From positions 17,383-81,382 of IMG/VR virus record IMGVR_UViG_3300033153_003354: 64,000 nt of DNA. The stretch is one strand, 5' to 3'. Origin of the DNA: a virus. The notes beneath the pieces were generated by a model. The model was not told the DNA's origin and made no database searches. It saw nothing but the letters and a program-made list of their open reading frames with translations. Below, piece by piece: positions 34,858-57,023 of this stretch. The position numbers and the translations under genes were made by a program. Each line of letters starts with the position of its first letter. Positions within the stretch are counted from its first letter, which is position 1.

Positions 34858-35383
34858 AATTAATAATCTTTTAAACATACCAAAACGAATGGGTGTACAA
34901 ATAGATTTAATAGATTTTGATGCTCATATAGATTCTACTCTTTCTTATAATGAAAATAAATTAATAATTACAAATTTATGTATTCCACTTTCTGAACAAC
35001 CAATTAATAATAAATATTTAGATCGACAAAATTCAAAAATTGTTCGGGCAATGAATAAAATAGTATGTTGTGTATATTGTAATGAAATTACCGAGAAAAC
35101 CAAAGATGGATATAAACACCGTCTTGGGTGTCAGATGATACACACAGCATGTAAAAAATTTAATGTTCCAAAAATTATAGAAGAACAAATTCGTGAAAAA
35201 ACAATTGATTGTTTTGAAGAATTGAAACCAAAAGATTGGAAACAGAAAAAGATTATTATAGGTGTACTTCTTTGGCAACTTGGAAACATCAAACAAAATG
35301 CAATAAAACGCAGGATTGATGTTTCACCAAGATCCCTCTCAAGATGGAGGGATAAAGTGATGAAAATAGTCAACGGGGAATAA
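34844..35383 (+). CDS. Possible TFB-like (cyclin-fold) transcription factor, 179 aa
   Basis: Residues about 70-95 hold two cysteine pairs or Cys/His pairs (CCVYCN, HRLGC), a weak zinc site. The C-terminal half (ACKKFNVPKIIEEQIREKTI then IIIGVLLWQLGNI and DVSPRSLSRWRDKV) follows the helical order of one TFIIB cyclin repeat, ending in a helix-turn-helix. A single-repeat TFB relative could redirect host RNA polymerase to viral promoters. The similarity is faint. Confidence 0.45.
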   Translation: MNNFEINNLLNIPKRMGVQIDLIDFDAHIDSTLSYNENKLIITNLCIPLSEQPINNKYLDRQNSKIVRAMNKIVCCVYCNEITEKTKDGYKHRLGCQMIHTACKKFNVPKIIEEQIREKTIDCFEELKPKDWKQKKIIIGVLLWQLGNIKQNAIKRRIDVSPRSLSRWRDKVMKIVNGE

Positions 35384-35790: not shown

Positions 35791-35926
35791 TGTTATGAGA
35801 TGTGCTGGGTGTGGGAAAAAATTAAAACCCACAAAGGAACCCAAAGATGCTGTTGTTTACTGTGTTCGTTGTAGCAGAGATGAGTTTCAATCTTTGGAAA
35901 AAGAATTACACGATATGCAATATTAG
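35783..35926 (+). CDS. Zinc-ribbon protein, 47 aa
   Basis: ATG 35783 overlaps the end of the previous gene by 8 bases. CAGCGKKL and CVRCSRD form a four-cysteine zinc ribbon, followed by a short helix (SLEKELHDMQY). Member of the large set of mini zinc-binding proteins in this genome. Confidence 0.65.
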   Translation: MCDVMRCAGCGKKLKPTKEPKDAVVYCVRCSRDEFQSLEKELHDMQY

Positions 35927-35939
35927 TCCATCTTTGGAA

Positions 35940-38071: not shown

Positions 38072-38597
38072 CATCTTTTTTGTGGCAGATGAACATTACC
38101 AGCATCACAACATAATCGGCTACACGAATCGACCATTCAAAGATTTGTCAACAATGCACAACGCATTGATAAGAAATTTCAACGAATTCGTATCCGAAGA
38201 TGATTTGACATATCATCTTGGGGATTTTTCTGTAACAAGACAAGTGGAACAAGAACACAAGCTAATGAAAATCCTAGATCGACTGAATGGAAGACATATT
38301 CTTATCATGGGGAATCATGATTATCTGAAAGCCCAACATTATATTGATATTGGTTTTCAAGAATTTCATTCATATCTATATCTTGAAGAGTATAAGTTAC
38401 ATTTAACACACGATCCAGCAGTTACCCAAGTCTTACCAGATGCCAATTGGCTCTGTGGACATGTCCACGGACTGTTCAAGCAAGTTGGTAATGTTATCAA
38501 TGTTGGAGTAGATGTTTGGGATTACAAGCCCGTATCGTTGGAAGTAGTGCAGAGTATGTTAATGTTTGCGGAGGATGAATATGGCAACATGTTATAA
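38064..38597 (+). CDS. Calcineurin-like metallophosphoesterase
   Basis: 177 residues. Metal-binding motifs are intact: DEHYQHHN (D-x-H), LGDF, GNHDYL, and GHVHGL. This small family (YfcE-like/phage phosphoesterase) hydrolyses phosphodiesters or acts on nucleotides and RNA ends. I chose ATG 38064 because GGAGG sits 9 bases before; ATGs at 38055 and 38058 are alternatives. It may work with the RlaP-like enzyme in RNA end processing. Confidence 0.88.
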   Translation: MSNIFFVADEHYQHHNIIGYTNRPFKDLSTMHNALIRNFNEFVSEDDLTYHLGDFSVTRQVEQEHKLMKILDRLNGRHILIMGNHDYLKAQHYIDIGFQEFHSYLYLEEYKLHLTHDPAVTQVLPDANWLCGHVHGLFKQVGNVINVGVDVWDYKPVSLEVVQSMLMFAEDEYGNML

Positions 38598-42301: not shown

Positions 42302-42516
42302 ATCAAGAAACTGGATGGAGCATCGAGGATATAACCTATGGTGGTATTGTATGGAGAGTTATAACATCAAATAACCAACCAAGAGGATTCATTTTTCGAC
42401 CTACCAAAGATGTGCCTTTTGCATATCGACCAGGAAGTGAATACGAATTATTGCAAGAAGAAGATTTGATTGCTATATCCAAACTGTTTAAATTTGTTAA
42501 TGGGATGATAAAATGA
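42289..42516 (+). CDS. Hypothetical protein, 75 aa
   Basis: ATG 42289 is in the end of paralogue B. Beta-rich (YGGIVWRVITSN) with a helical end. It overlaps the methyltransferase gene by 4 bases, so it may be a partner or regulator of it. Confidence 0.65.
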   Translation: MQHIDQETGWSIEDITYGGIVWRVITSNNQPRGFIFRPTKDVPFAYRPGSEYELLQEEDLIAISKLFKFVNGMIK

Positions 42517-44657
42517 AAAGTGAATATTTAATTGGTGATGCCAAAGATGTGTTGAAAACACTACCAGATAAACATTTTCAGTGTGTTGTTACAAGTCCTC
42601 CTTATTGGGGGTTGCGATCATATTTGCCCGATGATGATGCAGAGAAAAAGAACGAACTTGGTACTGAACAAACACCAGAAGAATATGTTGCCAACCTAGT
42701 TGATGTTTTTCGTGAAGTAAAAAGGGTGTTACGTGACGATGGAAATGTTTGGTTGAACCTGGGCGATAGTTATGCTTCATCTGCTACTGGATCATTTAAT
42801 GGAGGAGGATTCAAAGATTCTTCTGCAAAATCGGGTGGTAGAAATTTATCTGGAGTAGAATCAAGTGGAAAAATGGATAAATTAAAAGCAAGTGGACTCA
42901 AACCAAAAGATTTGGTTGGAATCCCGTGGCGTGTCGCATTTGCACTTCAGCAGGACGGTTGGTGGTTACGCCAGGATATAATATGGTGTCTATCAGGAGG
43001 AACCTATCTATACGTCAAATCACAGAAGGGAATCATGCCGATGACGGTGAAAGATTTATACCGACTCGATTTGACAAAATGTCAATTATGGAACGGTGAT
43101 AAATGGACTAATATACTCGGTATGAACAAATCTAAACGAAAAGGCGATGAGTTGGAAATGGTTTTACGAAGCGGAGAAAGAATATCATGTACACCAAATC
43201 ATAAATTCCCAACCGAAAGAGGAAATATAGAAGCATTGGAAATCGAAATTGGGGATGTAATTGAATCTGTTATGTTGCCCGATGGGAACACACCAGAATA
43301 TATCAATGCTGAAATGGCATGGTTTATTGGCATCTATTTGGCGGAAGGGTCTAAAAGCGGAAGTGCGTTGCAGATAGCGGGACATGTCAAAGAAAAAACT
43401 CGGTGGGAACGCATACAGCAAATGGTGAAGTATTATGGGGGCTCTTGTACCCGTACAATATCCGGCAATAAAATGGACATCCGGGTTTATGGTAGAATCA
43501 TTCATGCTATCATAACTGAACATATTTCTGGAAGAATAGCAAAGAACAAAGGACTGTCTAATAAATGTTGGCAATACGATAACAAGTTTTTGGATAACTT
43601 ACTAACTGGGTATCTGGAAGGTGACGGTCATTGGGACAAGGAAAATAAAAGGTGGCGACTCGGATTCACACGAAACTATAATCTTGAACGTGATTTGAGA
43701 TCGTTGTCTGCAAGGCTGGGATATTCCATAACATTAAAACCCAACATATCGGAAAATACCGTAACAGGGAAAAAACACCCATCATTCAGAGGCGAAATTA
43801 GGAAAACCGTATCTAATCACCACAATAATAAATCAAGAAATGAAGTGGTTGAAATTCGTAAAGCAAGATGTAGGTATGTGTATGACTTGGGTGTTGAGGA
43901 TTACCCACATACATTTTCGTTGGCAAGTGGTATATTAACACACAACTCAAAGCCCAATCCTATGCCAGAAAGTGTTACCGACAGATGCACAAAATCCCAC
44001 GAATACGTCTTTTTGTTGACTAAATCGGCAAGATATTATTACGATTCTGATGCAATAAGGGAAAACCACGACCACCCATCAATAAATCATAAATCGGATA
44101 GAAAAACCACTGAACAAGAAAAATCGTTCATCGGAAAAGCACCAACAAATTTAGGTAGATGTGGTAACAACCCAAACGGCAGAAACAAACGCTCGGTGTG
44201 GACAATTAATACAAAACCGTATAAGGAAGCTCATTTCGCAGTATTTCCGCCAGAATTACCAGAACTGTGCATAAAAGCTGGAACAAGTGCCAAAGGACAA
44301 TGCTCGAAATGTGGAAATCCTTGGATTAGAGAAATTGAGAAAATACAAACCAACAAAAGCAACGAAAAAGGTATAACTGAAATGATAGAAAAAGGTGTTC
44401 CAAGACAAAAAGCAAATTTATATGTTACACAAAAAAGAGGAACAAATAAAACAATCGGATGGAAACCAACATGTGATTGCAATGCAAAAATCGTACCACA
44501 AATCGTTCTAGATCCCTTTGCCGGAAGTGGGACAACAATTATGGTTGCAAAGGAACTTGGCAGACATGGTATTGGAATTGATCTCAATGATAAATATCGT
44601 GAAATTGCTGTCCGAAGATGTAATTTAGATGTTGAATCAGTGGAGGATTTCTTTTGA
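42513..44657 (+). CDS. DNA methyltransferase (class beta) with intein
   Basis: 714 residues before splicing; about 394 after. Catalytic motif TSPPYW is at residues 27-32 and the AdoMet-binding DPFAGSGTT at about 667-675, the beta order of amino-group (N6-adenine or N4-cytosine) DNA methyltransferases. CSKCGNP and CDC give an inserted zinc knuckle. The protein ends VESVEDFF, a PIP-like tail that would couple methylation to replication by PCNA. An intein interrupts the conserved IIW-SKPNPMPES. Likely protects viral DNA or regulates it. Confidence 0.93.
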   Translation: MKSEYLIGDAKDVLKTLPDKHFQCVVTSPPYWGLRSYLPDDDAEKKNELGTEQTPEEYVANLVDVFREVKRVLRDDGNVWLNLGDSYASSATGSFNGGGFKDSSAKSGGRNLSGVESSGKMDKLKASGLKPKDLVGIPWRVAFALQQDGWWLRQDIIWCLSGGTYLYVKSQKGIMPMTVKDLYRLDLTKCQLWNGDKWTNILGMNKSKRKGDELEMVLRSGERISCTPNHKFPTERGNIEALEIEIGDVIESVMLPDGNTPEYINAEMAWFIGIYLAEGSKSGSALQIAGHVKEKTRWERIQQMVKYYGGSCTRTISGNKMDIRVYGRIIHAIITEHISGRIAKNKGLSNKCWQYDNKFLDNLLTGYLEGDGHWDKENKRWRLGFTRNYNLERDLRSLSARLGYSITLKPNISENTVTGKKHPSFRGEIRKTVSNHHNNKSRNEVVEIRKARCRYVYDLGVEDYPHTFSLASGILTHNSKPNPMPESVTDRCTKSHEYVFLLTKSARYYYDSDAIRENHDHPSINHKSDRKTTEQEKSFIGKAPTNLGRCGNNPNGRNKRSVWTINTKPYKEAHFAVFPPELPELCIKAGTSAKGQCSKCGNPWIREIEKIQTNKSNEKGITEMIEKGVPRQKANLYVTQKRGTNKTIGWKPTCDCNAKIVPQIVLDPFAGSGTTIMVAKELGRHGIGIDLNDKYREIAVRRCNLDVESVEDFF
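42987..43946 (+). mobile_element. Intein with LAGLIDADG homing endonuclease, 320 aa
   Basis: Begins with Cys (CLSGGTYLYVKS), has block B GERISCTPNHKF, endonuclease motifs WFIGIYLAEGS and LLTGYLEGDGHW, block F VYDLGVEDYPHTF, and ends ASGILTHN followed by Ser+1 of the extein. All splicing residues (Cys1, block-B Thr/His, final Asn, +1 Ser) are present. The insertion point is inside a catalytic-domain motif, typical of inteins. Confidence 0.93.
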
Positions 44658-44688: not shown

Positions 44689-45642
44689 ATGAAAGTTCTT
44701 TTGATACAAATTGATGGGAAACTCCCAAATCTAGCCCTTATGAAGTTATCACAATACCATAAAGATCGTGGTGATATAGTTGTTCTTGAAAAATATAATC
44801 GTGCTCCAGGATGGGATATTCATAACCCAGATATGGTATATATTTCTTGTATTTGGAAAGAAAATCGTTTAGGTGCATTGGATGCACGAGATTTTTACCA
44901 ACAACGTGGGATAAAAACAATCATTGGTGGATCCGGTGTTGATTTAACTACAAAACTTGATCCAGACATTGAAAGATTGAAACCCGACTATTCATTATAT
45001 CCAGACAACGACAAATCAATGGGCTTTACAACGAGAGGGTGCATAAGGAAATGTGGTTTTTGTATAGTGCCAAAGAAAGAGGGCAAGATATGTAAATGGC
45101 AACATCCGAGAGAGTTTCATAACGAGGACTTTAACAAGATAACTTTACTTGATAGTAATGGTTATGCTATGAAAGATTGGTTCTTTGAGGTTACAGATTG
45201 GTATATGGAACAAGGATTAAAAATCGCTTACAATCAAGGGTTTGATATTAGGATATTGACAGAAGAAATCGCAGGAAGATTGGCAGATTTAAAATATTAT
45301 GAAACCTTACATTTTGCCTTTGATGGTATGGAGTATGAAGAAAAGGTGGTTGATGGTATTCAAATGTTGAAAGATGCAGGGATAAATATAAGATCAATGG
45401 TTCAATTTTTTGTATTGGTAGGTTACAATACCACCAAAGATGAAGATAAATATAGATGTCGATTATTGAAGGAATTAGGTACTGGTGCGTATGTCATGAG
45501 ATATAAAACCACTCCTTGGACAAAGAAAATATATCGTTGGGCTAACAGAAAAGAATTGTTTTGGTCTATTGATATAGATGATTACGATAGAAATCCAAAA
45601 CCAATTATCCCAGAAGCAGATAGTATAATGGAATTTATGTAA
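44689..45642 (+). CDS. Radical SAM protein with B12-binding-like N-terminus
   Basis: 317 residues from ATG 44689 (AAGGTGA before it). N-terminal ~100 residues have a Rossmann-like pattern similar to B12-binding domains (KTIIGGSGVD). The cluster motif is GCIRKCGFC (C-x3-C-x2-C) at about 119-127. Viral homologues of such proteins are known but their substrate is unknown; candidate roles are nucleotide or RNA modification. It lies 31 bases after the methyltransferase. Confidence 0.88.
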   Translation: MKVLLIQIDGKLPNLALMKLSQYHKDRGDIVVLEKYNRAPGWDIHNPDMVYISCIWKENRLGALDARDFYQQRGIKTIIGGSGVDLTTKLDPDIERLKPDYSLYPDNDKSMGFTTRGCIRKCGFCIVPKKEGKICKWQHPREFHNEDFNKITLLDSNGYAMKDWFFEVTDWYMEQGLKIAYNQGFDIRILTEEIAGRLADLKYYETLHFAFDGMEYEEKVVDGIQMLKDAGINIRSMVQFFVLVGYNTTKDEDKYRCRLLKELGTGAYVMRYKTTPWTKKIYRWANRKELFWSIDIDDYDRNPKPIIPEADSIMEFM

Positions 45643-46044: not shown

Positions 46045-46200
46045 AGATTGTAAATCATCTCTTAATAAATTTATTCGCAAACTTACTCATAGACCACTCC
46101 TTACCTATGTAAATATATAAAAGAGTTACTTCACACGTAAGGAGAAATTAATCGCCTTGCAAAGTCGAGTAACCCGAAGATGTATAAATATGTTTAGAAA
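46045..46200 (+). other. Intergenic region with weak RNA-like signals
   Basis: No gene. A TATA-like ATATATAAAAG lies at about 46108-46120, followed by an imperfect stem GTTACT/AGTAAC (46122-46174) that encloses AAGGAG and CCTTG. It may encode a small RNA, but evidence is thin. Confidence 0.3.
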
Positions 46201-46622: not shown

Positions 46623-46814
46623 ATGTCCAAAGATGAAACCCAATCGAACAACGAAACGATAAATGCAGTGTGCCAGCTGATAGAGAGGATAATGTTGGAG
46701 GGTGATGATCCATTCGCTCCGCATGTATATCTATCCTCATATCCAGAGTTGGCGATATATAATTTATCGGAATCCGAAATAAAAGAGATATGGGAAAAAG
46801 AGGTGATTAAATGA
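46623..46814 (+). CDS. Acidic hypothetical protein, 63 aa
   Basis: ATG 46623 follows GTAGAGGTGTAAAAAA. Helical, acidic, starts MSKDETQSNNETINAVCQL. The start region carries the CCAAAGATG word. No family. It begins a four-gene cluster. Confidence 0.65.
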   Translation: MSKDETQSNNETINAVCQLIERIMLEGDDPFAPHVYLSSYPELAIYNLSESEIKEIWEKEVIK

Positions 46815-47688: not shown

Positions 47689-47950
47689 GCTGGGACACAA
47701 AAAAGAGGTGATTTTGTCCAACCGAGCTGTGTCCCAGCGAAGTGATACAGGTCTGCCCGGTTTCTTACAGTGTTTCCATCCGTTTGTAAACCACTATATG
47801 ATGCACGTAGTATAAATACTTTCCTACCCCAAAGATGTTTTGCTGGACAAATGTCCAAATAACCACTTGGTTAAGAGTAAAATGACCGATTATAACACCG
47901 AAATAACCACTAAATTAAATTTTCGTCTGGTCAAAATCCCTACCAATTGA
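47525..47950 (+). repeat. Four direct repeats of AAATCTCTACCAATTGA
   Basis: Copies at 47525-47541, 47591-47607, 47668-47684 (identical) and 47934-47950 (one mismatch, CCC for CTC). Spacing is 66, 77 and 266 bases. The common core is 17 bases and flanks do not match. They could be iterons of an origin, protein-binding sites, or remnants of a CRISPR-like array. Confidence 0.8.
47689..47762 (+). ncRNA. Putative pseudoknotted RNA element
   Basis: A perfect 11-bp inverted repeat GCTGGGACACA/TGTGTCCCAGC (47689-47699 with 47728-47738). The last 8 loop bases AACCGAGC (47720-47727) can pair with GCCCGGTT (47755-47762) with one mismatch, giving an H-type pseudoknot with no gap between stems. It follows directly after repeat copy 3. 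Confidence 0.45.
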
Positions 47951-48586: not shown

Positions 48587-49757
48587 ATCACCCCGATTTG
48601 TGGTTTTATCGGATTTTCGACAAATCCAGAAAACGGATCACCAACAATCTATGTCAAAGATGTATAAAAACCTTTCCCAAGGATGATTTTATAGACCCCA
48701 TGGGTCTATCGCCCAAAATACTCCAAAAGTCAGGGGAAGTATATAATCTATTATTATTATATACAATACTGAAACGAAATATTTATCAGTGGTGGTATTT
48801 AAACTTCCACTACTAGAAGTTTAAGTTTATATACTTACATAAATAACAAGTCAAATAAACAAACCATATATTAGAATAATATATGGTATAGTATGCCTAA
48901 ATATCCAAACCTTCTATATATACCTTGACATGTCAGTTGTGGTAGTTCTATTATTACCACTACTGTGAAGTGATAGAATTAAACTATATAAACTTGCACT
49001 GCCAGCCATGTTGTCGTATTATATTATGTATATAATATAGGGATCTGCTTGTTATCTTTCTATTATATATATTTTATGGAGTGTTACTTTTCCATATTTT
49101 GCAATTCTGTGGACCGATTTTAAATTTGATATCCGTTAAACCTCGAAATACTCCATATATTCAATAAAAAGGGGTCAAAACTATCACGGAATCGAAAACC
49201 ACCCAAAATCGAAAAAAAGGGGGGTCATATATATAGATGAAGGAAAAAATAATGTTTTTTTGATAAAGTGTGTTTTTTTACAATATATATAATAATTTCT
49301 ATTACTAGTCAGATAACACCACTAACAAGTGGGATTACAAATGGAATTGTTAGTAAATTAACCAAAGATGGAAATGTAAATTTGACTATCAATCGACTAT
49401 TAAATTCATCATTTTGTTGTTCTGTGTAACTTGCAGTGACATAGATCAACCATATCATCTTTGGTATAGATTACTATAGAAATAAGATTGATGATAAAGT
49501 GGAAAGGACACCCGTGAGTGTTTAAGAATAAAGTGTTGTGATCGTCTGTGTCCTATTCCAAAGATGAATGTACTTGTATGTATATAAATGTATTGGTCGT
49601 TTGATTGTCCGGTTGTTCCGTTAATCCTACGGAGTAATGGATCAAACGGCGTACATATACTAACCATCACAAATCATCTTTGGGTCGACACATGGACCTG
49701 TATGGGTGGTTTCTGTGGACAATAAATACTTATACATCTTTGGATATAACATATTAT
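48587..49757. other. Long non-coding region dense in inverted repeats (candidate origin/control region)
   Basis: About 1.1 kb without a convincing gene. Perfect inverted repeats: ATAGACCC/GGGTCTAT (48691-48709), TTAAACTTC/GAAGTTTAA (48799-48824), ACCATATATTA/TAATATATGGT (48863-48887), TGACATGTCA (48926-48935), GTGGTA/TACCAC (48939-48960) and CGTTTGAT/ATCAAACG (49598-49648). TATA boxes occur at about 48828, 48975 and 49581. Five CCAAAGATG words fall in 49362-49743. Confidence 0.55.
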
Positions 49758-50306
49758 ATGATTCCAAAGAGGGATGAAAAACGAGAACAACGAATAATAA
49801 AACGATGTATTAAATTACTTAAATATTATAATATTACAAATGTAAACGTGGTGTTTGATGGTAGGTTGAAACATATGTCTTATTATAATCAATTAAGTAG
49901 AAAGATAGTTTTAAATTCAACCTGGTTATATGCTAATACCCAAACTATGTTTTGGACACGTGTTGTTCTACATGAGATCGCACACGTCATCCATTGGGAT
50001 GAATATATTTGGTTGCAACCATCACAATTTCATAATAATATGTTTAAAGAAATATTCTTTTCTATTGGTGGAACAGGATGTGGGAATGAAACACAAGATG
50101 GAGATTTTAAAAACTTATATAATGTATATAAATGTAATAAATGTGGTTATAAATGGTATTCACCAACAAAATTTATAGACAAAGAACACCCACATATATC
50201 TGATACTTGTGATGGTATGGTAATACATATAGGATCAAAAATACTTTCCACTGGAAGTGTAGACTCAAAGATGAAGTTGAAAACTATTTCCACTGGAAAT
50301 CAATAG
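49758..50306 (+). CDS. SprT-like zinc metallopeptidase 1
   Basis: 182 residues from ATG 49758; a TATA box (AATAAATACTT, 49721-49731) predicts a transcript start near 49750. An in-frame ATG at 49692 is less likely. The motif VVLHEIAHVIH is the HExxH zinc site, followed by a distal zinc ribbon (CNKCGYKW and a later Cys). SprT/Spartan proteins cleave DNA-crosslinked proteins or act at replication forks. A second family member is at 60142. Confidence 0.82.
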   Translation: MIPKRDEKREQRIIKRCIKLLKYYNITNVNVVFDGRLKHMSYYNQLSRKIVLNSTWLYANTQTMFWTRVVLHEIAHVIHWDEYIWLQPSQFHNNMFKEIFFSIGGTGCGNETQDGDFKNLYNVYKCNKCGYKWYSPTKFIDKEHPHISDTCDGMVIHIGSKILSTGSVDSKMKLKTISTGNQ

Positions 50307-50364
50307 TGAAATGTACAACATGGTCTATATATCATTGGTTTGGTGTCCCACTTTGTACACTCGA

Positions 50365-50733
50365 TTATAACACAAAAGATTTGGTTGTTGTTTTGTTTGA
50401 CTTGTGTATTGTCTTTATATTGGTATGTATGCCATTCCCATGGAGTAACTTCAAATTTGGTCGTGATGATGTGACTAGTAACATTCCTTTACGTCTGGCA
50501 CTATCTAACACTGCCATATATTCAAGGAATTCCTCTGGTGTTTTATCTGCCTTCAAATAGTTGCATATAGAACACGAACAAACAAGGTTGTCATCGTTAT
50601 CTTTTCCTCCTCCTCTCGATATGGGTGTCAGATGGTCCACAGTCATTATGACGGAATTTATACTACCACAATAATAACAAGTATAATCATCACGTTCCAT
50701 GATTTTGAATTTCTTATTTTTTGAAAGACACAT
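50365..50733 (-). CDS. HNH endonuclease
   Basis: 122 residues. IMERDDYTCYYCG, VDHLTPISRGG and CSICNYLK give the complete HNH fold with its zinc cysteines. A basic extension follows (SSRPNLKLLHGNG). It is either a free-standing homing or defence nuclease or has a role in packaging. It is in a four-gene minus-strand island among plus-strand genes. Confidence 0.92.
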   Translation of the reverse strand: MCLSKNKKFKIMERDDYTCYYCGSINSVIMTVDHLTPISRGGGKDNDDNLVCSCSICNYLKADKTPEEFLEYMAVLDSARRKGMLLVTSSRPNLKLLHGNGIHTNIKTIHKSNKTTTKSFVL

Positions 50734-50737
50734 TCAA

Positions 50738-51076
50738 TCACCCAACAATAATTATACCTGTAGTTGGAGACATAACCTCAATAACTTCGATCTTTGATTG
50801 TTTTATTTGTTTGTCGGGTCTGTATTGGTCCACAAGATCTATTGGTTTAATCATTCTTCCAACATTAAATTTATAAAACTTCCAACAATCATTGATTGGT
50901 TTGAATGCCCAAATCTTGTTATCATGACCACAATTAAATCGTGCGAATATAAATCCATCCTTTCCTATATAAATACAAGGAGCATGTAATATATCACCAA
51001 ATAATCTATCCATGGTTGCCTTTATATTTACCTTTATATATCCTCTTAACTTATTGGCTGTGAATTTCATTTCCAA
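50738..51076 (-). CDS. Hypothetical protein, 112 aa
   Basis: Alpha/beta protein with aromatic strands (IYIGKDGFIFARFNCG) and a C-terminal beta part. Overlaps the upstream zinc protein gene by 10 bases. No family. Confidence 0.65.
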   Translation of the reverse strand: MEMKFTANKLRGYIKVNIKATMDRLFGDILHAPCIYIGKDGFIFARFNCGHDNKIWAFKPINDCWKFYKFNVGRMIKPIDLVDQYRPDKQIKQSKIEVIEVMSPTTGIIIVG

Positions 51077-51318
51077 TCCTCCACATCATCTGAAAATGCT
51101 TTATGTTTTCCTTTGTGTCCTTCTCCTCTGATACATTGACGACCATCTTTGTTTTCATCATCACACCGATCTACAAATTTAGAAATCTTTCTCCCACATA
51201 CACAACAATAATTATCATCTTCGGTAATGTAATCATTGTCACATTTATCACATTTATAAAAAATTGTATATAGTTCTTCTAATCCATCTTCTATTGCTAT
51301 TGTTGTTTTGTTTTTCAT
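51067..51318 (-). CDS. Zinc-ribbon protein, 83 aa
   Basis: CDKCDND and CCVCGRK form a zinc ribbon around residues 23-42; a second motif, CDDENKDGRQCIRGEGHKGK then H, matches the Cys/His pattern of a small 'C..G..GHxGxH' module. Part of the minus-strand island. Confidence 0.7.
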   Translation of the reverse strand: MKNKTTIAIEDGLEELYTIFYKCDKCDNDYITEDDNYCCVCGRKISKFVDRCDDENKDGRQCIRGEGHKGKHKAFSDDVEDWK

Positions 51319-51322
51319 TTAA

Positions 51323-51457
51323 TCACCCAGGACCGTCTTTGCCAGCAGATCCATAAGGACCGACATATTCATCTTCATTCTTCGCTTCTGATATAGTAAT
51401 CTTACCATCAGAGAATGTGATTTCCACCGTATGTTCATCTATTATATTTACTTTCAT
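51323..51457 (-). CDS. Small acidic protein, 44 aa
   Basis: ATG 51457 follows AAGGTGAACC; the start codon is the end of a CCAAAGATG word. MKVNIIDEHTVEITFSDGK is a beta-rich start; the rest is acidic with a glycine end. First gene of the minus-strand island. Confidence 0.55.
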   Translation of the reverse strand: MKVNIIDEHTVEITFSDGKITISEAKNEDEYVGPYGSAGKDGPG

Positions 51458-51487
51458 CTTTGGTTCACCTTACAACTACATATCAGT

Positions 51488-51502
51488 AGTAGTATATATA
51501 AG
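51488..51502 (-). promoter_or_regulatory. TATA promoter of the minus-strand island
   Basis: On the minus strand TACTTATATATACTA lies 35-45 bases before the first ATG (51457). Transcript start near 51473 leaves a short leader with AAGGTGA. Confidence 0.6.
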
Positions 51503-51639
51503 TATCTACCCAAAGATGAATTTAACATTTTATGATTATATGTAGTGATAAATTATTATTTTGTATTCATAAATGATTTATTGGTCCGTTGGTTTTACAA
51601 ATCAATGGATCAAAATGTAACACATCTTTGGATAACAAA

Positions 51640-51653
51640 GTTTATATATTTCT
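51640..51653 (+). promoter_or_regulatory. TATA promoter
   Basis: AAGTTTATATATTTC; about 31 bases to ATG 51684 after the start site, with TTAGGAGATTAG as leader. A CCAAAGATG word (51623) lies immediately upstream. Confidence 0.7.
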
Positions 51654-51683
51654 TGGGTGTTGTTACAATTAGGAGATTAGAAA

Positions 51684-51869
51684 ATGGAACTAATATGGAC
51701 AATATTCGTAGGCGTGTTACTTGCAAATGTAGTTGGATCAGTGGTGACTTTTCTTTTGGTAATGTTGCCATTATCACTATTACAATATGTATTGAAAAAG
51801 AAACTAAATGAACAACTAGTGAAATTATGTGTAGATGCCAAACTAAATCATGTCATTATAGAAAAGTGA
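51684..51869 (+). CDS. Small membrane protein, 61 aa
   Basis: N-terminal half is one long hydrophobic region with one or two spans (IWTIFVGVLLANVVGSVVTF). The C-terminus is hydrophilic and basic. GGAG lies 9 bases before the ATG. Unknown function. Confidence 0.65.
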   Translation: MELIWTIFVGVLLANVVGSVVTFLLVMLPLSLLQYVLKKKLNEQLVKLCVDAKLNHVIIEK

Positions 51870-51882
51870 AAGGTGGAACAAA

Positions 51883-52299
51883 ATGACCAAAGATGAATTT
51901 AATTGGACCGAAGATAAAGTGATGGATTTTATTGACAAACAAGATGAATTCAAAAAACATTGTCGAGAAGTGGTAGTAACAATTCAAGAAATAAGAACCA
52001 GTAATAATTTCAATTATAAATTCAAAGAATATGATTCTATATCAATTGAAGAAGGAACGGTATTTGTTGAATATGAAGAAGATTTATGTGGTTGTTGTGA
52101 TAATAGAATGTCAATTACATTTCCTATTAAATATCTTTGGGCAACCATAGAGGATTTTGAACAATATGAAAAGGATCTTGAAAAGGCTGCTATGGCAACA
52201 GAAGCATATAGGAAAACGATGCTTGAAGCGGCCAAGTTAAAAAAAGAAATTCTGGAAAAACAAGAATATGATCGTCTTCGGGAAAAGTTTGGTGATTAA
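51883..52299 (+). CDS. Hypothetical protein with CGCC motif, 138 aa
   Basis: AGGTGGAAC precedes the start. Alpha/beta N-terminal domain with YEEDLCGCCDNRMSIT, then a long coiled-coil C-terminus (EKAAMATEAYRKTMLEAAK). Start region overlaps a CCAAAGATG word. No family. Confidence 0.7.
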   Translation: MTKDEFNWTEDKVMDFIDKQDEFKKHCREVVVTIQEIRTSNNFNYKFKEYDSISIEEGTVFVEYEEDLCGCCDNRMSITFPIKYLWATIEDFEQYEKDLEKAAMATEAYRKTMLEAAKLKKEILEKQEYDRLREKFGD

Positions 52300-52300
52300 G

Positions 52301-52486
52301 ATGGGTATATATGAAAAATGTTACAAAGAACAATACGGAGAAGAGTTTGAAGCATGGAAATCAGATACATCCGATACATATAATGAATGTATGGATAAAT
52401 TGATTAATTCAGGAGTTGGCATAATGGATGCTTTCATATTTGTAGAAGAAATAATTTCCGCCACTAGGGAAGAATATGGTGATTAA
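52301..52486 (+). CDS. Hypothetical protein, 61 aa
   Basis: Helical protein MGIYEKCYKEQYGEEFEAWK, one base after the previous stop with GGTGATTAAG. No known family. Confidence 0.6.
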   Translation: MGIYEKCYKEQYGEEFEAWKSDTSDTYNECMDKLINSGVGIMDAFIFVEEIISATREEYGD

Positions 52487-52672
52487 ATGGAACATCAACA
52501 TAGATTTTATCGTGTGACAACAAAAGATGGACTCAAGGGACCATTTGAACCAATAGAAGAACTAATACTAACAATAGGTAGTATAAATATAGAGGATTAT
52601 CCATTATCAATAGAATTAAAAGAAATGACATTTGAAGAATATGAAGATCTACCAGTATGGTTAGGATGGTGA
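52487..52672 (+). CDS. Hypothetical protein, 61 aa
   Basis: Immediately follows the prior stop. Small alpha/beta protein (HRFYRVTTKDGLKGPF), acidic. Likely in one operon from 51684 on. Confidence 0.6.
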   Translation: MEHQHRFYRVTTKDGLKGPFEPIEELILTIGSINIEDYPLSIELKEMTFEEYEDLPVWLGW

Positions 52673-52676
52673 GTGA

Positions 52677-52838
52677 ATGATAACAGTAACACATTGTAAT
52701 AAATGTAAGGGCGATGGATCTTATCTAACTGGTGGAAACAGAGAACGAAAAATATATGGTCCAGGTGGATCACAAACGTTTAAGACATGTAGTAAATGTA
52801 ATGGAACTGGTCATGTTGTTAAAGAGGTGAGTAAATGA
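52677..52838 (+). CDS. DnaJ-type zinc-finger protein, 53 aa
   Basis: CNKCKGDGSY and CSKCNGTGHV are two C-x-x-C-x-G-x-G motifs, separated by a glycine-rich arm as in DnaJ zinc modules. It resembles the gene at 40468. May bind unfolded proteins or be a structural zinc adaptor. Confidence 0.7.
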   Translation: MITVTHCNKCKGDGSYLTGGNRERKIYGPGGSQTFKTCSKCNGTGHVVKEVSK

Positions 52839-52924
52839 CATGTTTAGAATGTGGATGCCCAATGATAAGAGAACAGTATGGAAGATGTCAATGTGATTGT
52901 GAGTGGTGCGATCCTGATTTATAG
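52835..52924 (+). CDS. Cysteine-rich mini-protein, 29 aa
   Basis: Overlaps the previous stop as ATGA. MTCLECGCPMIREQYGRC then QCDCEWC: seven cysteines in 29 residues, a metallothionein-like or compact zinc-knuckle design. Confidence 0.5.
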   Translation: MTCLECGCPMIREQYGRCQCDCEWCDPDL

Positions 52925-52931
52925 GACCAAT

Positions 52932-52943
52932 AAGTTTATATAC
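52932..52943 (+). promoter_or_regulatory. TATA promoter
   Basis: AAGTTTATATAC, followed by the leader ACCATCATTATTAGG and AAGGTGAAA before ATG 52980. Similar leaders occur at 56748 and 62552. Confidence 0.68.
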
Positions 52944-52979
52944 TACCATCATTATTAGGTTGTTAAGGTGAAACCAAAG

Positions 52980-53210
52980 ATGGAAAACAAAGTGAAGGTG
53001 GAACATGTGATTAATCATATAAAAATAAAAGAAGAAATACAAAGATTAATAGAATTGGACAAGCAAGAAAGAGAAATACTTCTTGATATTACTAATAAAA
53101 CAGAAAAAGTAATTGCTGATATTAAATTTTTAAATGGTAGAATGCATGCATATAATATGGTATTACATTTAATGGATAAACAAGAATTTCAATATGTGGA
53201 GGATTTGTGA
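52980..53210 (+). CDS. Coiled-coil protein, 76 aa
   Basis: MENKVKVEHVINHIK; a heptad-rich helix covers most of it. GTG 52968 is another possible start, but AAGGTGA sits at proper distance from ATG 52980. Next gene also begins MENKV. Confidence 0.65.
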   Translation: MENKVKVEHVINHIKIKEEIQRLIELDKQEREILLDITNKTEKVIADIKFLNGRMHAYNMVLHLMDKQEFQYVEDL

Positions 53211-53399
53211 ATGGAAAACAAAGTGACAAAGGATGATTTACGAGTATGTGAAGTAATGATTCCAAATGAATTATGTGTGCTGAAGGCAAATAATCATATT
53301 GGTGATGATGTATATATTGTCAGACCACACTCTACCAATTATGATACAAAGATATGTAAGAATTGTACATTTCAACAAATGTGCAGGAATTCACAGTAG
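53211..53399 (+). CDS. Zinc-binding protein, 62 aa
   Basis: MENKVTKDDLRVCEVMIPNE; cysteines at C-terminus CKNCTFQQMC with one earlier. Adjacent to prior stop. Unknown. Confidence 0.6.
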   Translation: MENKVTKDDLRVCEVMIPNELCVLKANNHIGDDVYIVRPHSTNYDTKICKNCTFQQMCRNSQ

Positions 53400-53409
53400 G
53401 TGAAACAAA

Positions 53410-53814
53410 ATGATAACATGGTTACTTCTTTGGTTTTTAGGATACCGTAGACTAATTGTAAACAGTAAAGAAACTTGTTTTAAATCCAAAGGTACAGTCA
53501 TTTGGATAGGTAAAGATGGAGTTTTATATTCATGGATGACAGATAGATATTCTATGTTTGGATATTCATGGTTCCGTAAAAAACCAAGTAGAAAATATTG
53601 GGGCGGGTATATTTCTGGTGGATGCTGGGAAAGTTATATTTTAGATGATCTTATTGGATATATAATAAAAGATCGTCCATCAAAGATGAAGGAACAAACA
53701 GAAATACTAGTTATAAAATGCGTTCCAACATTTAGATGTGAATATGGTTTTGAAACAGATAACGTTCTTATAATGAACGATCATCATGTGGAGTGTTACA
53801 CATATGAAGGATAA
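53410..53814 (+). CDS. Hypothetical protein, 134 aa
   Basis: Hydrophobic N-terminus (ITWLLLWFLGYRRLIV), possibly a signal anchor, then aromatic beta-rich sequence with YWGGYISGGCWESY. Overlaps the next gene by 11 bases. Confidence 0.6.
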   Translation: MITWLLLWFLGYRRLIVNSKETCFKSKGTVIWIGKDGVLYSWMTDRYSMFGYSWFRKKPSRKYWGGYISGGCWESYILDDLIGYIIKDRPSKMKEQTEILVIKCVPTFRCEYGFETDNVLIMNDHHVECYTYEG

Positions 53815-54088
53815 ACGAATTTTTAAATACAAATTAAACATAATCGATAGTCAATATATTCCAATGCCACAAGGTTCACAAATTCTATCAGTCAAAGAAC
53901 AAAATGGAACATTAAATATATGGGCAATAGTAGATATAAATAATGATAATATCAAAAATAGATGGTTTTACATCTTTGGAACAGGAAATGAATTTGATAT
54001 ATCTCTTGATGATGCTAAATTTATTGGCACTGTGGTAATGTCAAATGGTCTAGTATGGCACGTTTTTGATGGTGGAGAAACACAATGA
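53804..54088 (+). CDS. DUF7352-like phage protein, 94 aa
   Basis: The protein follows a widespread small phage family: KYKLNIIDSQYIPMPQGSQI, LSVKEQNGTLNIWAIVD, IFGTGNEFD, and the terminal GLVWHVFDGG. Function of the family is not known. ATG 53804 chosen by alignment to the usual start (W/F-KYxL). Confidence 0.8.
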   Translation: MKDKRIFKYKLNIIDSQYIPMPQGSQILSVKEQNGTLNIWAIVDINNDNIKNRWFYIFGTGNEFDISLDDAKFIGTVVMSNGLVWHVFDGGETQ

Positions 54089-54113
54089 ATAAAAATGAAC
54101 AATATCGACACAC

Positions 54114-54205
54114 CTCCCACCTGACCCAGACAGGTGTAAATTATTCTGGGTGGAGCGGGGATCTCTCGGTCCCGTCACCGAGTCCAGGCGGTGAGTATCC
54201 TGGAC
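54114..54205 (+). ncRNA. GC-rich block of interlocked inverted repeats (pseudoknot-like RNA)
   Basis: GC content is far above the surroundings (57 of 95 bases in 54111-54205). Interlocked pairs: CACCTG/CAGGTG (54118/54131) with ACCCAGA/TCTGGGT (54124/54145), the latter extendable by CTCC/GGAG; CGGG/CCCG (54156/54171) with CTCGGT/ACCGAG (54165/54177); TCACCG/CGGTGA (54175/54189) with GTCCAGG/CCTGGAC (54182/54199). The geometry suits tandem H-type pseudoknots or mutually exclusive hairpins. An open frame (54085-54249) also crosses it, so coding cannot be excluded. Confidence 0.5.
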
Positions 54206-54223
54206 ATCATCTTTGGGTCCATA

Positions 54224-54236
54224 AACTATATATACT
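54224..54236 (+). promoter_or_regulatory. TATA promoter
   Basis: AAACTATATATACTTCC, preceded by a CCAAAGATG word on the minus strand (54208-54216), followed by a leader with TTAGAGGTG before ATG 54270. Confidence 0.68.
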
Positions 54237-54269
54237 TCCACTACTATAGGGTATTAGAGGTGTCACAAA

Positions 54270-54476
54270 ATGAACCAAGAAACAAACCATAAAAGTGAGC
54301 CACACGACAAGTTCATAGTAAAATGGGTCCAGGAGGAGAATGATGGAAATCTTGTTGAATTAAAAGATGATTTCAACTCACTTCATGATGTAAACGAACA
54401 CATCACTCAACTACGACTCTATGCAGAACATACAGGAAAAACTTTCAAAGTAATATCTATTACAGAGGTGATCTAG
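54270..54476 (+). CDS. Hypothetical protein, 68 aa
   Basis: Small alpha/beta protein with HDKFIVKWVQEENDGNLVEL; promoter and AGAGGTG leader support the start. No family recognised. Confidence 0.65.
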   Translation: MNQETNHKSEPHDKFIVKWVQEENDGNLVELKDDFNSLHDVNEHITQLRLYAEHTGKTFKVISITEVI

Positions 54477-54629
54477 ATGATCGAAGATGATGTTAAATAC
54501 ATATGTCCAGATGCACCAGGTGGATGCAAATCATTGCATTGTTATCACAAAAATCCACATCAACATATAGATTATTATTGTGACACAGATGGAAAAATAT
54601 GTGGTCATGTTTGTGAGAAGGTGGAATGA
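54477..54629 (+). CDS. Cysteine-rich protein, 50 aa
   Basis: Six cysteines and several histidines (CPDAPGGCKSLHCYH, then YYCDTDGKICGHVC) suggest two metal sites. Overlaps the next ATG. Confidence 0.6.
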   Translation: MIEDDVKYICPDAPGGCKSLHCYHKNPHQHIDYYCDTDGKICGHVCEKVE

Positions 54630-54835
54630 TGAAAGGAACAATATATTTTCTAACACATGGAAACGAAAAACCAGAGATAATAACTTATGATGAAGTTGAA
54701 AATGAGGATCATTTCATGAATATGATGGTTGCAGCAGTAATAATCGGAAAAGAAGATGGAATATTCACGGATAAGGCGGTTGGATATTTCAATGGTGTGT
54801 GGTATCATGCCATACCTGAAAAGGAGGCCGAATAA
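54629..54835 (+). CDS. Hypothetical protein, 68 aa
   Basis: MKGTIYFLTHGNEKPEIITY; alpha/beta. ATG 54626 or 54629, overlapping the previous stop. AAGGTGG is upstream. Unknown. Confidence 0.62.
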   Translation: MKGTIYFLTHGNEKPEIITYDEVENEDHFMNMMVAAVIIGKEDGIFTDKAVGYFNGVWYHAIPEKEAE

Positions 54836-54939
54836 TAGCATGTTCAGAGTGTCCACACTGTGGTTGGATGGGTAATCAAATGACTTGTCCAGAATGTGGA
54901 TGGATTTGTGTATATGATGAAAGGGAGGAAGATCAATGA
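54835..54939 (+). CDS. Zinc-ribbon mini-protein without a standard start codon, 34 aa
   Basis: The frame reads ACSECPHCGWMGNQMTCPEC then GWIC, a good double zinc knuckle. AAGGAGG is correctly spaced, but the codon at the start position (54835) is ATA. The neighbours use AATAAAATG or TAATG in the same place, so a G-to-A change of the start codon is likely; ATG 54873 would leave a stub. It may be a decaying gene. Confidence 0.4.
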   Translation: MACSECPHCGWMGNQMTCPECGWICVYDEREEDQ

Positions 54940-55703
54940 AAACAATAGAAGAAATCAGAGAATTTCTAGTGTCTAATGGGTATGAAATGAAAATAAATTC
55001 TACAAAATATATACAAATAAAACCAAATCAACACGAAGAATATCCCAAAACAATCTTTGGTTTGTCAAATAATGATTCTATTTATGGATCAGTTTGTGAT
55101 GGTTTTTCATGTACACGTGATGATAATCATGAAGGACCGCATGAGGCTGGATTTGAAACTGTAGCAGTTGCGTGGTGGACAACTAAAAATGTACCCAAAG
55201 ATGAATATATGGGTCCATTAGGTGATATGAGAGAACCAATGGTCGTTATATGTCCGAAATGTAAAGGACACGAATTTAATGTTGAATCATGTGATTTTTG
55301 TGAAAGAACTGGTACGATAATCTCATGGATGTTGGTTTCTGATCTTATGAAATGGTTAGAATATCATGCGTGTTATTACGGTTTTGTAAAGAAGGCGGTG
55401 CTTGCTATAGAAACAATAAACCACAAAAACGAAGATGAACAAGTGGATCCAAGTGAAGATAAAATATCATCATCAAAGTGTTCGAAATGTGGTTTTCTTT
55501 ATGAAGGAGAAATTCGAATATCTTGTCCCAACTGTGGATTAATCATTCCACAAGATTGTTTGATAAATAGTGTTGAATTAGATGAACATGACAAGTTAGC
55601 ATTAACACAGTATAAAGACAATGATCTTCAAAAGGAAATCAAAGTCGGAAAAAAGCAAGCAATAAAAAATATAAAATGTTTCTCTAGGAGAACGTTTGAT
55701 TAA
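54936..55703 (+). CDS. Zinc-ribbon protein, 255 aa
   Basis: N-terminal alpha/beta region with CDGFSCTRDDNHEGPHEAGF, the Cys/His pattern 'C..DxxHxGxH' also seen at 51067. Middle: CPKCKGHEF and CDFCERTG; C-terminal: CSKCGFLY and CPNCGLII. At least three zinc sites. Probably a multi-zinc adaptor protein; similar C-terminal ribbon in the gene at 59841. GGGAGGAAGATCA precedes the ATG. Confidence 0.75.
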   Translation: MKTIEEIREFLVSNGYEMKINSTKYIQIKPNQHEEYPKTIFGLSNNDSIYGSVCDGFSCTRDDNHEGPHEAGFETVAVAWWTTKNVPKDEYMGPLGDMREPMVVICPKCKGHEFNVESCDFCERTGTIISWMLVSDLMKWLEYHACYYGFVKKAVLAIETINHKNEDEQVDPSEDKISSSKCSKCGFLYEGEIRISCPNCGLIIPQDCLINSVELDEHDKLALTQYKDNDLQKEIKVGKKQAIKNIKCFSRRTFD

Positions 55704-55713
55704 AGGTGATTGA

Positions 55714-55887
55714 ATGAAAATTGCATGTGAAGAATGTAGATTTTGGTTGAAAAATGAGCCGGATATAGGCAATTGTAAAAAATTACCTCCAACACCAAAT
55801 TTTGATTTTAGTGGACCAATATCACTGTGGCCCAGAACACGATCCAGAGATTGGTGTTATTCTGGTGAATATAAGGAGAGTGAATAA
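55714..55887 (+). CDS. Cysteine-rich phage-type protein, 57 aa
   Basis: Pattern C-x-x-C-RFW, GNCKKLPPTP, SLWPRTRSRDWC is that of a common small phage/prokaryote protein with four cysteines. Paralogue at 59603. AAGGTGATTGA before the start. Confidence 0.72.
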   Translation: MKIACEECRFWLKNEPDIGNCKKLPPTPNFDFSGPISLWPRTRSRDWCYSGEYKESE

Positions 55888-56091
55888 ATGAAAATCATCA
55901 TTGAAGAAGATATTAAAGGAACAGGAACAGTAATAGATATAACAAAAAATGCCATAGTCATTGGATCTGGAAGATATGATATTATCATTTGTACCAATGC
56001 TTGGTTTGAAGATGTGTTTGAATGGGTTATGGATGATATAGATTGGTTGTTACCATTCTTTGGATATATTCAGTGGAATGTGGAGGAATAA
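55888..56091 (+). CDS. Hypothetical protein, 67 aa
   Basis: MKIIIEEDIKGTGTVIDITK: a beta-barrel-like start, then an aromatic acidic helix (WFEDVFEWVMDDIDWLL). Starts right after the prior stop. Unknown. Confidence 0.62.
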   Translation: MKIIIEEDIKGTGTVIDITKNAIVIGSGRYDIIICTNAWFEDVFEWVMDDIDWLLPFFGYIQWNVEE

Positions 56092-56147
56092 AATGACAAC
56101 AGATAAAGTTTTTATAGAAGTATGTTATTGTATTGATAGGTGAAAAT

Positions 56148-56503
56148 ATGAGTTATGACATATATCTAATGGATCCACACACCGGAAAAAACCTTGAAAT
56201 TAAAAACAAACATACCATCTCTGGAGGAACATATTGTGTTGGTGGAACTGAACGTCTATGGTTGAATGTGACTTATAATTATGTCAAACATTTTAAAAAA
56301 GTTTTTGGAAAAAAGGAATTAGAATTATCTATGGGAAAACTGCTGAAGAAACAATTCCCATACTTAAGGATGCGATTTCAAAACTCGGAGATGATGTGGA
56401 TGATGATTATTGGAAATCAACCGAAGGAAATGCCAAAGATGCATTGAAAAATCTTCTTAAGTTAGCTGAACTTGCACCTGACGGAGTATGGAATGGTGAT
56501 TAA
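56148..56503 (+). CDS. Conserved phage protein with -1 frame change at a slippery heptamer
   Basis: Frame 0 encodes MSYDIYLMDPHTGKNLEI, GGTYCVGGTERLWLNVTYNY and HFKKVFGKK, then drifts to non-family sequence and stops at 56447. The family C-terminus, GIRIIYGKTAEETIPILKDA and PDGVWNGD, is in the -1 frame ending 56503. The frames join at A AAA AAG (56309-56315), in frame as GGA AAA AAG. So it is either programmed -1 frameshifting or loss of one A. Joined length is about 118 residues, normal for this family. ATAGGTGAAAAT precedes the ATG. Confidence 0.75.
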
Positions 56504-56743
56504 ATGAAAATATCAGCAGGAGTATTCTTTTTATTCGGTTTCCTTTGTGCTACATTTGCATATGCAATACTTTCATTCCTCAACCCATCTGTGGATCCAT
56601 TGTTGATTTTGTGCAGCATTGGGTTTGTTGGTGGTATGTTTGGTATGATCTTCGAGAAAGGTTATGTTTTGTATAACGAAAACAAAGATGAAATAAAAAT
56701 ATTGTATGATAAATATAAATCAAAGATGAATATTGACCAATAA
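56504..56743 (+). CDS. Small membrane protein, 79 aa
   Basis: Two hydrophobic spans (VFFLFGFLCATFAYAILSFL and LLILCSIGFVGGMFGMIF) joined by a short Pro/Asp turn, then a charged tail (ENKDEIKILYDKYKSKM). Two-span topology with charged end is compatible with a class II holin-like role, but there is no lysis gene nearby. Confidence 0.65.
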   Translation: MKISAGVFFLFGFLCATFAYAILSFLNPSVDPLLILCSIGFVGGMFGMIFEKGYVLYNENKDEIKILYDKYKSKMNIDQ

Positions 56744-56756
56744 GTATAAATAGTAA
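56744..56756 (+). promoter_or_regulatory. TATA promoter
   Basis: AATAAGTATAAATAG, then leader ACATCATTATGTAG and TAGGTGAAATAAA before ATG 56787; same design as at 52932 and 62545. Confidence 0.62.
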
Positions 56757-56786
56757 CATCATTATGTAGTTAGTAGGTGAAATAAA

Positions 56787-57023
56787 ATGACCGACTTGAA
56801 AATAGATTTGAATGTTGTTGTTGAATGCAAAAACTGTGGCAATACACTTGATGTAGATTGTGATTTAGATGCACACCATCTTTGGATAAGTATGAAACCA
56901 TGTAAACATTGTATTTCAATTCTTGTTGAAGAATCAAAAGATAGAATTCAAGAACTTAATTCGATTGGACGAGATCAAGAAGAACGAATACGAGAAATGG
57001 AAGATGAATTAAGTAATAGATAA
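56787..57023 (+). CDS. Zinc-finger plus coiled-coil protein, 78 aa
   Basis: CKNCGNTLDVDC and CKHC form a zinc site in the first 45 residues; the rest is a coiled coil (KDRIQELNSIGRDQEERI). Might dimerise. A CCAAAGATG word on the minus strand crosses codons 31-33. Confidence 0.68.
   Translation: MTDLKIDLNVVVECKNCGNTLDVDCDLDAHHLWISMKPCKHCISILVEESKDRIQELNSIGRDQEERIREMEDELSNR

What the first reader, a model, noticed from the sequence alone, without database searches (positions are those of the whole stretch)
49362..56885. Over-represented 9-base word CCAAAGATG throughout the genome
Reading both strands I find at least 39 exact copies of CCAAAGATG: 337, 1902, 6852, 9203, 15689, 17187, 18025, 24431, 31298, 31578, 32903, 35100, 35841, 35929, 42404, 42541, 45434, 46627, 47830, 49362, 49456, 49558, 49675, 49735, 51455, 51510, 51623, 51887, 52974, 53971, 54208, 55195, 56433, 56877, 58908, 61019, 62014, 62398, 62984 (left ends). 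A back-of-envelope estimate at about one-third GC gives fewer than one expected. It occurs in genes in several frames, in both orientations and between genes, with 15 copies in 49.3-56.9 kb, several right beside TATA boxes or start codons. Codon bias cannot explain that. Possibilities: binding site of a viral DNA-organising or packaging protein, a Chi-like or uptake-like sequence, a methylation site, or an operator of a global regulator.
Basis: seen in the sequence. Interest (0 to 1): 0.9.

Follow-up and report, generated by a model that had tools for sequence, protein, structure and literature searches.

The report
Dispersed nine-base word in archaeal virus
The genome of an unclassified tailed virus, probably of archaea, carries the same nine-letter DNA word (CCAAAGATG) about ten times more often than its proteins and codon habits predict, scattered in genes, between genes and on both strands, so something that reads DNA (most likely a protein of the virus) seems to have selected it; what reads it is unknown.

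Summary
Confirmed: 39 exact CCAAAGATG in the window (one listed coordinate is off by one), 46 in the 81,382-base IMG/VR virus record, 0 for the reversed word. It is the top repeated 9-mer under a third-order Markov model (46 vs 3.2). Synonymous codon shuffling gives 3.4 copies in genes; 35 are there. At [S/T/P/A]-Lys-Asp sites read xCN-AAA-GAT-G, the free base is C in 20 of 21 (9% genome-wide). One-mismatch forms are 2x enriched, giving CC-RRR-GATG. Copies lie in both orientations, 3x denser between genes, clustered at 49.4-56.9 kb; four sit exactly 17-18 nt 3' of a TATA box. The word is not enriched in 300 Thermoproteota genomes, unrelated viral contigs or distant relatives, so it looks private to this virus; other archaeal phyla could not be searched. 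Best reading: dispersed sites of a sequence-specific DNA-binding protein, probably viral, used as operator at some promoters and silencer/organiser elsewhere. Lead: HF1-group haloviruses (distant PolB relatives) carry another dispersed word (CTCGATG, evenly spaced), switched to CTCAATG in a related contig.

The parts
337..345 (+). word CCAAAGATG
   Evidence: in gene, sense, PKM
1902..1910 (+). word CCAAAGATG
   Evidence: SNF2 helicase gene, sense, TKDD
6852..6860 (+). word CCAAAGATG
   Evidence: antisense in gene
9203..9211 (+). word CCAAAGATG
   Evidence: antisense in gene
15689..15697 (+). word CCAAAGATG
   Evidence: antisense in gene
17187..17195 (-). word CCAAAGATG
   Evidence: sense in gene, SKDD
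18025..18033 (-). word CCAAAGATG
   Evidence: sense in gene, TKDE
24431..24439 (+). word CCAAAGATG
   Evidence: antisense in gene, IFG
31298..31306 (+). word CCAAAGATG
   Evidence: antisense in terminase gene, IFG
31578..31586 (-). word CCAAAGATG
   Evidence: sense in terminase gene, TKDD
32903..32911 (+). word CCAAAGATG
   Evidence: sense, PKM
35100..35108 (+). word CCAAAGATG
   Evidence: sense, TKDG
35841..35849 (+). word CCAAAGATG
   Evidence: sense, PKDA
35929..35937 (-). word CCAAAGATG, intergenic, downstream of a TATA box
42404..42412 (+). word CCAAAGATG
   Evidence: sense, TKDV
42541..42549 (+). word CCAAAGATG
   Evidence: sense in DNA methyltransferase gene, AKDV
45434..45442 (+). word CCAAAGATG
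   Evidence: sense in radical SAM gene, TKDE
46627..46635 (+). word CCAAAGATG, codons 2-5 of a small ORF
47829..47837 (+). word CCAAAGATG, intergenic, 18 nt after start of a TATA box
49362..49370 (+). word CCAAAGATG, cluster A
49456..49464 (-). word CCAAAGATG, cluster A
49558..49566 (+). word CCAAAGATG, cluster A, intergenic
49675..49683 (-). word CCAAAGATG, cluster A, intergenic
49735..49743 (-). word CCAAAGATG, cluster A, directly 5' of TATAAG
51455..51463 (-). word CCAAAGATG overlapping a start codon, cluster B
51510..51518 (+). word CCAAAGATG, cluster B, 17 nt after start of a TATA box
51623..51631 (-). word CCAAAGATG, cluster B, 17 nt after start of a TATA box
51887..51895 (+). word CCAAAGATG, codons 2-5 of a gene
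52974..52982 (+). word CCAAAGATG, intergenic
53971..53979 (-). word CCAAAGATG
   Evidence: antisense in gene, IFG
54208..54216 (-). word CCAAAGATG, intergenic, 18 nt after start of a TATA box, 5' of a GC-rich candidate RNA
55195..55203 (+). word CCAAAGATG
   Evidence: sense, PKDE
56433..56441 (+). word CCAAAGATG
   Evidence: sense, AKDA
56877..56885 (-). word CCAAAGATG
   Evidence: antisense, HLW
58908..58916 (+). word CCAAAGATG
   Evidence: sense, SKDE
61019..61027 (-). word CCAAAGATG, intergenic
62014..62022 (+). word CCAAAGATG
   Evidence: sense, PKM
62398..62406 (-). word CCAAAGATG
   Evidence: antisense in gene
62984..62992 (+). word CCAAAGATG
   Evidence: sense, PKDE
46174..46182 (+). 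variant CCGAAGATG directly 5' of TATAAATA (one of 12 CCGAAGATG copies in the window)
10602..10610 (-). variant CCGAAGATG
17799..17807 (+). variant CCGAAGATG
20008..20016 (+). variant CCGAAGATG
22468..22476 (+). variant CCGAAGATG
28772..28780 (-). variant CCGAAGATG
31356..31364 (-). variant CCGAAGATG
32847..32855 (-). variant CCGAAGATG
37782..37790 (+). variant CCGAAGATG
38194..38202 (+). variant CCGAAGATG
44612..44620 (+). variant CCGAAGATG
51216..51224 (-). variant CCGAAGATG
47811..47816 (+). TATA box TATAAA paired with the word at 47829
51493..51498 (+). TATA box TATATA paired with the word at 51510
51643..51648 (-). TATA box TATATA paired with the word at 51623
54229..54234 (-). TATA box TATATA paired with the word at 54208
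49362..49743 (.). cluster A: five words within 382 bp, mostly noncoding
51455..51631 (.). cluster B: three words within 177 bp between divergent genes

Best explanation
CCAAAGATG (more loosely CC-RRR-GATG) is the recognition site of a sequence-specific double-stranded-DNA-binding protein, most likely encoded by this virus, with sites scattered over its whole genome. Shown: the word is selected as DNA, independent of protein sequence and codon usage, on both strands, with near-misses also enriched. Supported but weaker: at a few promoters it sits at a fixed place between the TATA box and the expected transcription start, where a bound protein would block or steer transcription, and it clusters in two noncoding stretches.
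For: 46 copies vs 3.2 by third-order Markov; 35 in genes vs 3.4 by synonymous shuffle, 300 shuffles, max 10. xCN before AAA-GAT-G ends in C in 20/21, vs 15.7% before AAA in other contexts, p = 1.5e-15. Mismatch halo: 10.5x at distance 0, 2.0x at 1 (controls 1.01 +/- 0.22, max 1.55), 1.16x at 2, 0.99x at 3. Intergenic copies 11/46 in 8.2% of the sequence, p = 0.001. Four copies 17-18 nt 3' of a TATA start, P = 0.005. Clusters P = 0.004 and 0.00025. Density 5.7e-4 per base against at most about 3.3e-5 in 300 Thermoproteota genomes, and baseline in unrelated viral contigs, so it is a property of this virus.
Against: No reader protein is identified and no close relative is available to test conservation of positions. 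Most copies (35/46) are inside genes in either orientation, not where a classical operator works. The TATA-linked set is small (4-5). Gaps between copies show no regular spacing. A density-driven word (uptake, packaging, Chi) would give much the same statistics.
Confidence: 0.45

Rival explanations
1. Density-driven word: the virus is enriched in a signal that favours its DNA in transfer, packaging or recombination (uptake-sequence-like, packaging-like or Chi-like). Copies accumulate wherever proteins tolerate them.
For: The distribution resembles bacterial uptake sequences as described in PMC1939737: mostly in ORFs, enriched in noncoding DNA, not palindromic, mismatched forms enriched, both orientations.
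Against: Fixed spacing from TATA boxes is not expected. Strand bias is only marginal (30:16, p = 0.054), weak for a Chi-like word. Tailed viruses package from a terminase site, so a dispersed word has no known role there (own knowledge).
Confidence: 0.22
2. The word belongs to the host: the host chromosome is rich in it (as HIP1 in cyanobacteria) and the virus has adapted.
For: The host is unknown. Only Thermoproteota could be searched; the 59% identical TnpB in a Marsarchaeota genome is a weak hint at host group.
Against: None of 300 Thermoproteota genomes exceeds about 3.3e-5 per base, against 5.7e-4 in the virus. The TATA-linked copies suggest a viral function.
Confidence: 0.15
3. The word is the target of one of the virus's own DNA methyltransferases, kept abundant as a self mark.
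For: Four N6/N4 methyltransferase-domain genes in the record; asymmetric sites of this specificity are known for some methyltransferases (own knowledge).
Against: No link between any of them and the word. A graded mismatch halo and TATA-linked copies are not expected for an enzyme site.
Confidence: 0.1
4. Artefact of repeated protein motifs or codon bias.
For: 20 copies encode [STPA]-Lys-Asp; TKD and KDE are about 2x over chance.
Against: Synonymous shuffles, the 20/21 third-base choice, 12 antisense and 11 noncoding copies.
Confidence: 0.01

Closest known systems
Stoperators of cluster A mycobacteriophages (L5, Bxb1; PMC6550527, PMC9283540)
   Same: Asymmetric word, tens of copies across one tailed-virus genome, some at promoters and most not; word differs between viruses.
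   Different: Stoperators are oriented with transcription and number 20-30; here both orientations occur (23 sense, 12 antisense) and most copies are embedded in genes. No repressor identified.
DNA uptake sequences (USS/DUS) of Haemophilus and Neisseria (PMC1939737)
   Same: 9-10 base word, about one per 1-2 kb, both strands, mostly in ORFs (Haemophilus) but enriched in noncoding DNA, graded enrichment of mismatched forms.
   Different: Those are cellular genomes with natural competence; here a virus, with clusters and TATA-linked copies; no uptake known.
Dispersed word CTCGATG of HF1-group haloviruses (found here, not known to be described)
   Same: Short asymmetric word, both strands, far above synonymous expectation (HF2: 143 vs 35), absent from a Halorubrum plasmid slice (16 vs 13.7), in a distant PolB relative.
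   Different: Different word, denser (2 per kb), evenly spaced (CV 0.73, 0/3000 simulations), not in HF2 intergenic promoter repeats; virus only about 30% identical in PolB.
Chi sites and HIP1
   Same: Over-represented octamer-type words (own knowledge).
   Different: Chi is strand-biased with replication; HIP1 is palindromic and cellular (own knowledge).

Membership tests
stoperators | tens of asymmetric copies of one word dispersed in a phage genome | tested here: met
   46 exact copies
stoperators | one orientation relative to transcription | tested here: not met
   23 sense, 12 antisense in genes
stoperators | some sites are operators in promoters | tested here: inconclusive
   four copies 17-18 nt from TATA, P = 0.005; no assay
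stoperators | cognate repressor that terminates elongation | not testable with these tools
   no candidate repressor found
uptake sequences (USS/DUS) | over-represented in coding and noncoding DNA on both strands, with a mismatch halo | tested here: met
uptake sequences (USS/DUS) | the cell takes up DNA carrying the word preferentially | not testable with these tools
   host unknown
Chi-like | strand bias following replication | tested here: inconclusive
   30:16, p = 0.054; origin unknown
HIP1-like cellular word | word abundant in the host chromosome | tested here: inconclusive
methylation target | modified base in the word | not testable with these tools
   needs long-read signal
HF1-group word CTCGATG | even spacing along the genome | tested here: not met
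   CV 1.14 vs 0.97 expected at random

The most novel reading that the evidence does not exclude
Several lineages of archaeal tailed viruses each carry their own genome-wide DNA word, read by a fast-changing viral protein that marks, organises or silences viral DNA; words switch in concert between relatives (CTCGATG to CTCAATG), and CCAAAGATG is the word of an unclassified lineage.
Probability: 0.25. Interest if true: 0.85.

Novelty: new variant of a known kind. Interest (0 to 1): 0.62.

Why it matters
Dispersed recognition words are known for bacterial competence, recombination and a few phage repressors; I found no report of one in an archaeal tailed virus (library searches only). If real it gives a direct handle (a nine-base bait) on an unknown archaeal viral DNA-binding protein, and raises the question whether such viruses tag their genomes with private words. 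The HF1-group halovirus lead makes it testable in cultivated virus-host pairs.

Tried and rejected
Codon bias and repeated peptides: rejected. Baseline word common in viruses: rejected. The one dense other hit, L049, is gene-duplicate repeats. Word of Thermoproteota hosts: no enrichment. Terminase relatives in Thermoproteota (25-29% identity): no CCAAAGATG enrichment and no strong word of their own. Relatives by terminase, portal and PolB in IMG/VR and phage records: nothing closer than about 30-37%. Host by RFC: nothing; by TnpB: only a weak Marsarchaeota hint. Palindrome, GATC and CTAG avoidance as cause of the HF2 word: explains only 45-53 of 143. Even spacing in this virus: absent. Rfam: only the tRNA.
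Full report
The window is bases 17,383-81,382 of an 81,382-base IMG/VR virus record with 46 copies, 30 on one strand and 16 on the other, and no copy of the reversed word. Under a third-order Markov model 3.2 are expected (z 24); no other repeated 9-mer comes close apart from its own variant CCGAAGATG and its overlapping neighbours.

The virus. It has a large terminase subunit, a Mu-type portal-MuF fusion, tape measure and tail genes, family B DNA polymerase, two RFC-type ATPases, an ERCC4 nuclease, an SNF2 helicase, four N6/N4 methyltransferase-domain proteins and a TnpB. Its polymerase is nearest to haloarchaeal tailed viruses (28-29% identity by tblastn), and TATA-like boxes precede genes, so I take it for a tailed virus of archaea. 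That is an inference; the host is unknown. No close relative was found.

It is DNA that is selected, not protein. I called 128 genes (92% coding). Twenty-three copies read sense in genes, 12 antisense, and 11 lie wholly or partly between genes, which make up 8.2% of the sequence (p = 0.001). Shuffling synonymous codons leaves 3.4 copies in genes on average (max 10 of 300) against 35. Where a codon xCN is followed by AAA GAT G, its free third base is C in 20 of 21 cases, although C is used in 9% of xCN codons and in 15.7% of those before AAA elsewhere (p = 1.5e-15). One-mismatch forms are enriched 2.0-fold (random neighbourhoods 1.01 +/- 0.22), two-mismatch 1.16-fold, three-mismatch not. Tolerated changes (CCGAAGATG 14 vs 0.7, CCAGAGATG, CCAAGGATG, CCAATGATG) give CC-RRR-GATG, 59 in genes vs 5.5 expected.

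Placement. Copies are densest at 46-64 kb (1.22 per kb) and rarest in the structural genes (0.28 per kb). Five lie in 382 bp at 49,362-49,743 (mostly noncoding), three in 177 bp at 51,455-51,631. The largest counts in a 400-bp and a 7.6-kb window both exceed chance (P = 0.004 and 0.00025). Four copies (47,829; 51,510; 51,623; 54,208) begin 17-18 nt after the start of a TATA box in the same orientation (P = 0.005); in HF2 promoters the TATA box begins at about -26 from the transcription start (PMC8707807), so the word would lie just upstream of or over the start site. Two further copies abut a TATA box on its 5' side (46,174 variant; 49,735). Gaps are otherwise random.

Private to this virus. 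The word is at background in 35 viral records fetched because they hold two copies close together and in 429 fetched loci. It is at most about 3.3e-5 per base in 300 Thermoproteota genomes against 5.7e-4 here. Other archaeal phyla could not be searched, so a host-imposed word is not excluded.

What it most likely is. Both strands, nearly all frames, a graded halo and a fixed relation to some promoters point to a double-stranded-DNA-binding protein. I favour a viral regulator/organiser with dispersed sites (0.45). Stoperators are the nearest known arrangement, but their orientation rule (PMC6550527) is not met here. Uptake sequences match the statistics well (PMC1939737), but not the promoter-linked copies. 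Methylation cannot be tested here.

A lead from relatives. Among polymerase relatives, HF2 has CTCGATG 143 times in genes vs 35 by synonymous shuffle (45-53 when its avoided palindromes, GATC and CTAG are kept out). Its 160 copies are more evenly spaced than random (CV 0.73 vs 0.99; 0 of 3000), the lowest CV (tied) among 101 frequent 7-mers. A Halorubrum megaplasmid slice is not enriched (16 vs 13.7). Serpecor1 (L115, identified by its 74,196-base length given in PMC7230728) shares the word. A 72.5%-identical contig (L094) instead favours CTCAATG (31 vs 7), and 7 of 26 aligned CTCGATG copies are CTCAATG there, about 0.3 expected by my estimate. Codon-pair effects in HF2 are not fully excluded (phase bias), and this word differs from ours in spacing and frame use, so it is a parallel, not proof of one system.

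Noticed in passing
Halorubrum phage HF2 (L172, L173), Serpecor1 (L115), L094: HF1-group haloviruses carry an over-represented, evenly spaced word CTCGATG on both strands; a related contig prefers CTCAATG, with 7 of 26 aligned sites switched.
   Followed up: partly
48143-48583 (-): 146-aa protein with histone-fold-like sequence (Pfam CBFD_NFYB_HMF E = 0.029, below cut-off; short-long-short helices in a low-confidence model): possible virus-encoded archaeal histone, next to word cluster A.
   Followed up: partly
54080-54205 (-): GC-rich stretch with several stems in an AT-rich genome, behind a TATA box with the word: candidate noncoding RNA, no Rfam match; folding z only -1.5.
   Followed up: partly
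47502-47950: Four direct repeats ending AAATCTCTACCAATTGA (one copy AAATCCCTACCAATTGA) in a gene-poor region; possible origin or iteron-like element.
   Followed up: no
42513-44657 (+): N6/N4 DNA methyltransferase interrupted by an intein; the 703-aa methyltransferase at L009:8782-10893 also seems to carry an insertion.
   Followed up: no
33365-34375 (+): TnpB, 59% identical to one in a Marsarchaeota G1 genome, otherwise at most about 42% to plasmid or phage TnpBs.
   Followed up: partly
L127, L136: Two viral contigs strongly enriched in words containing TGCGCA beyond synonymous expectation.
   Followed up: no
L176 (Halorubrum tailed virus 25): GGCAGGAAG (10 vs 0.5) and related CGGCRRGAA words over-represented: perhaps another virus-specific word.
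   Followed up: no
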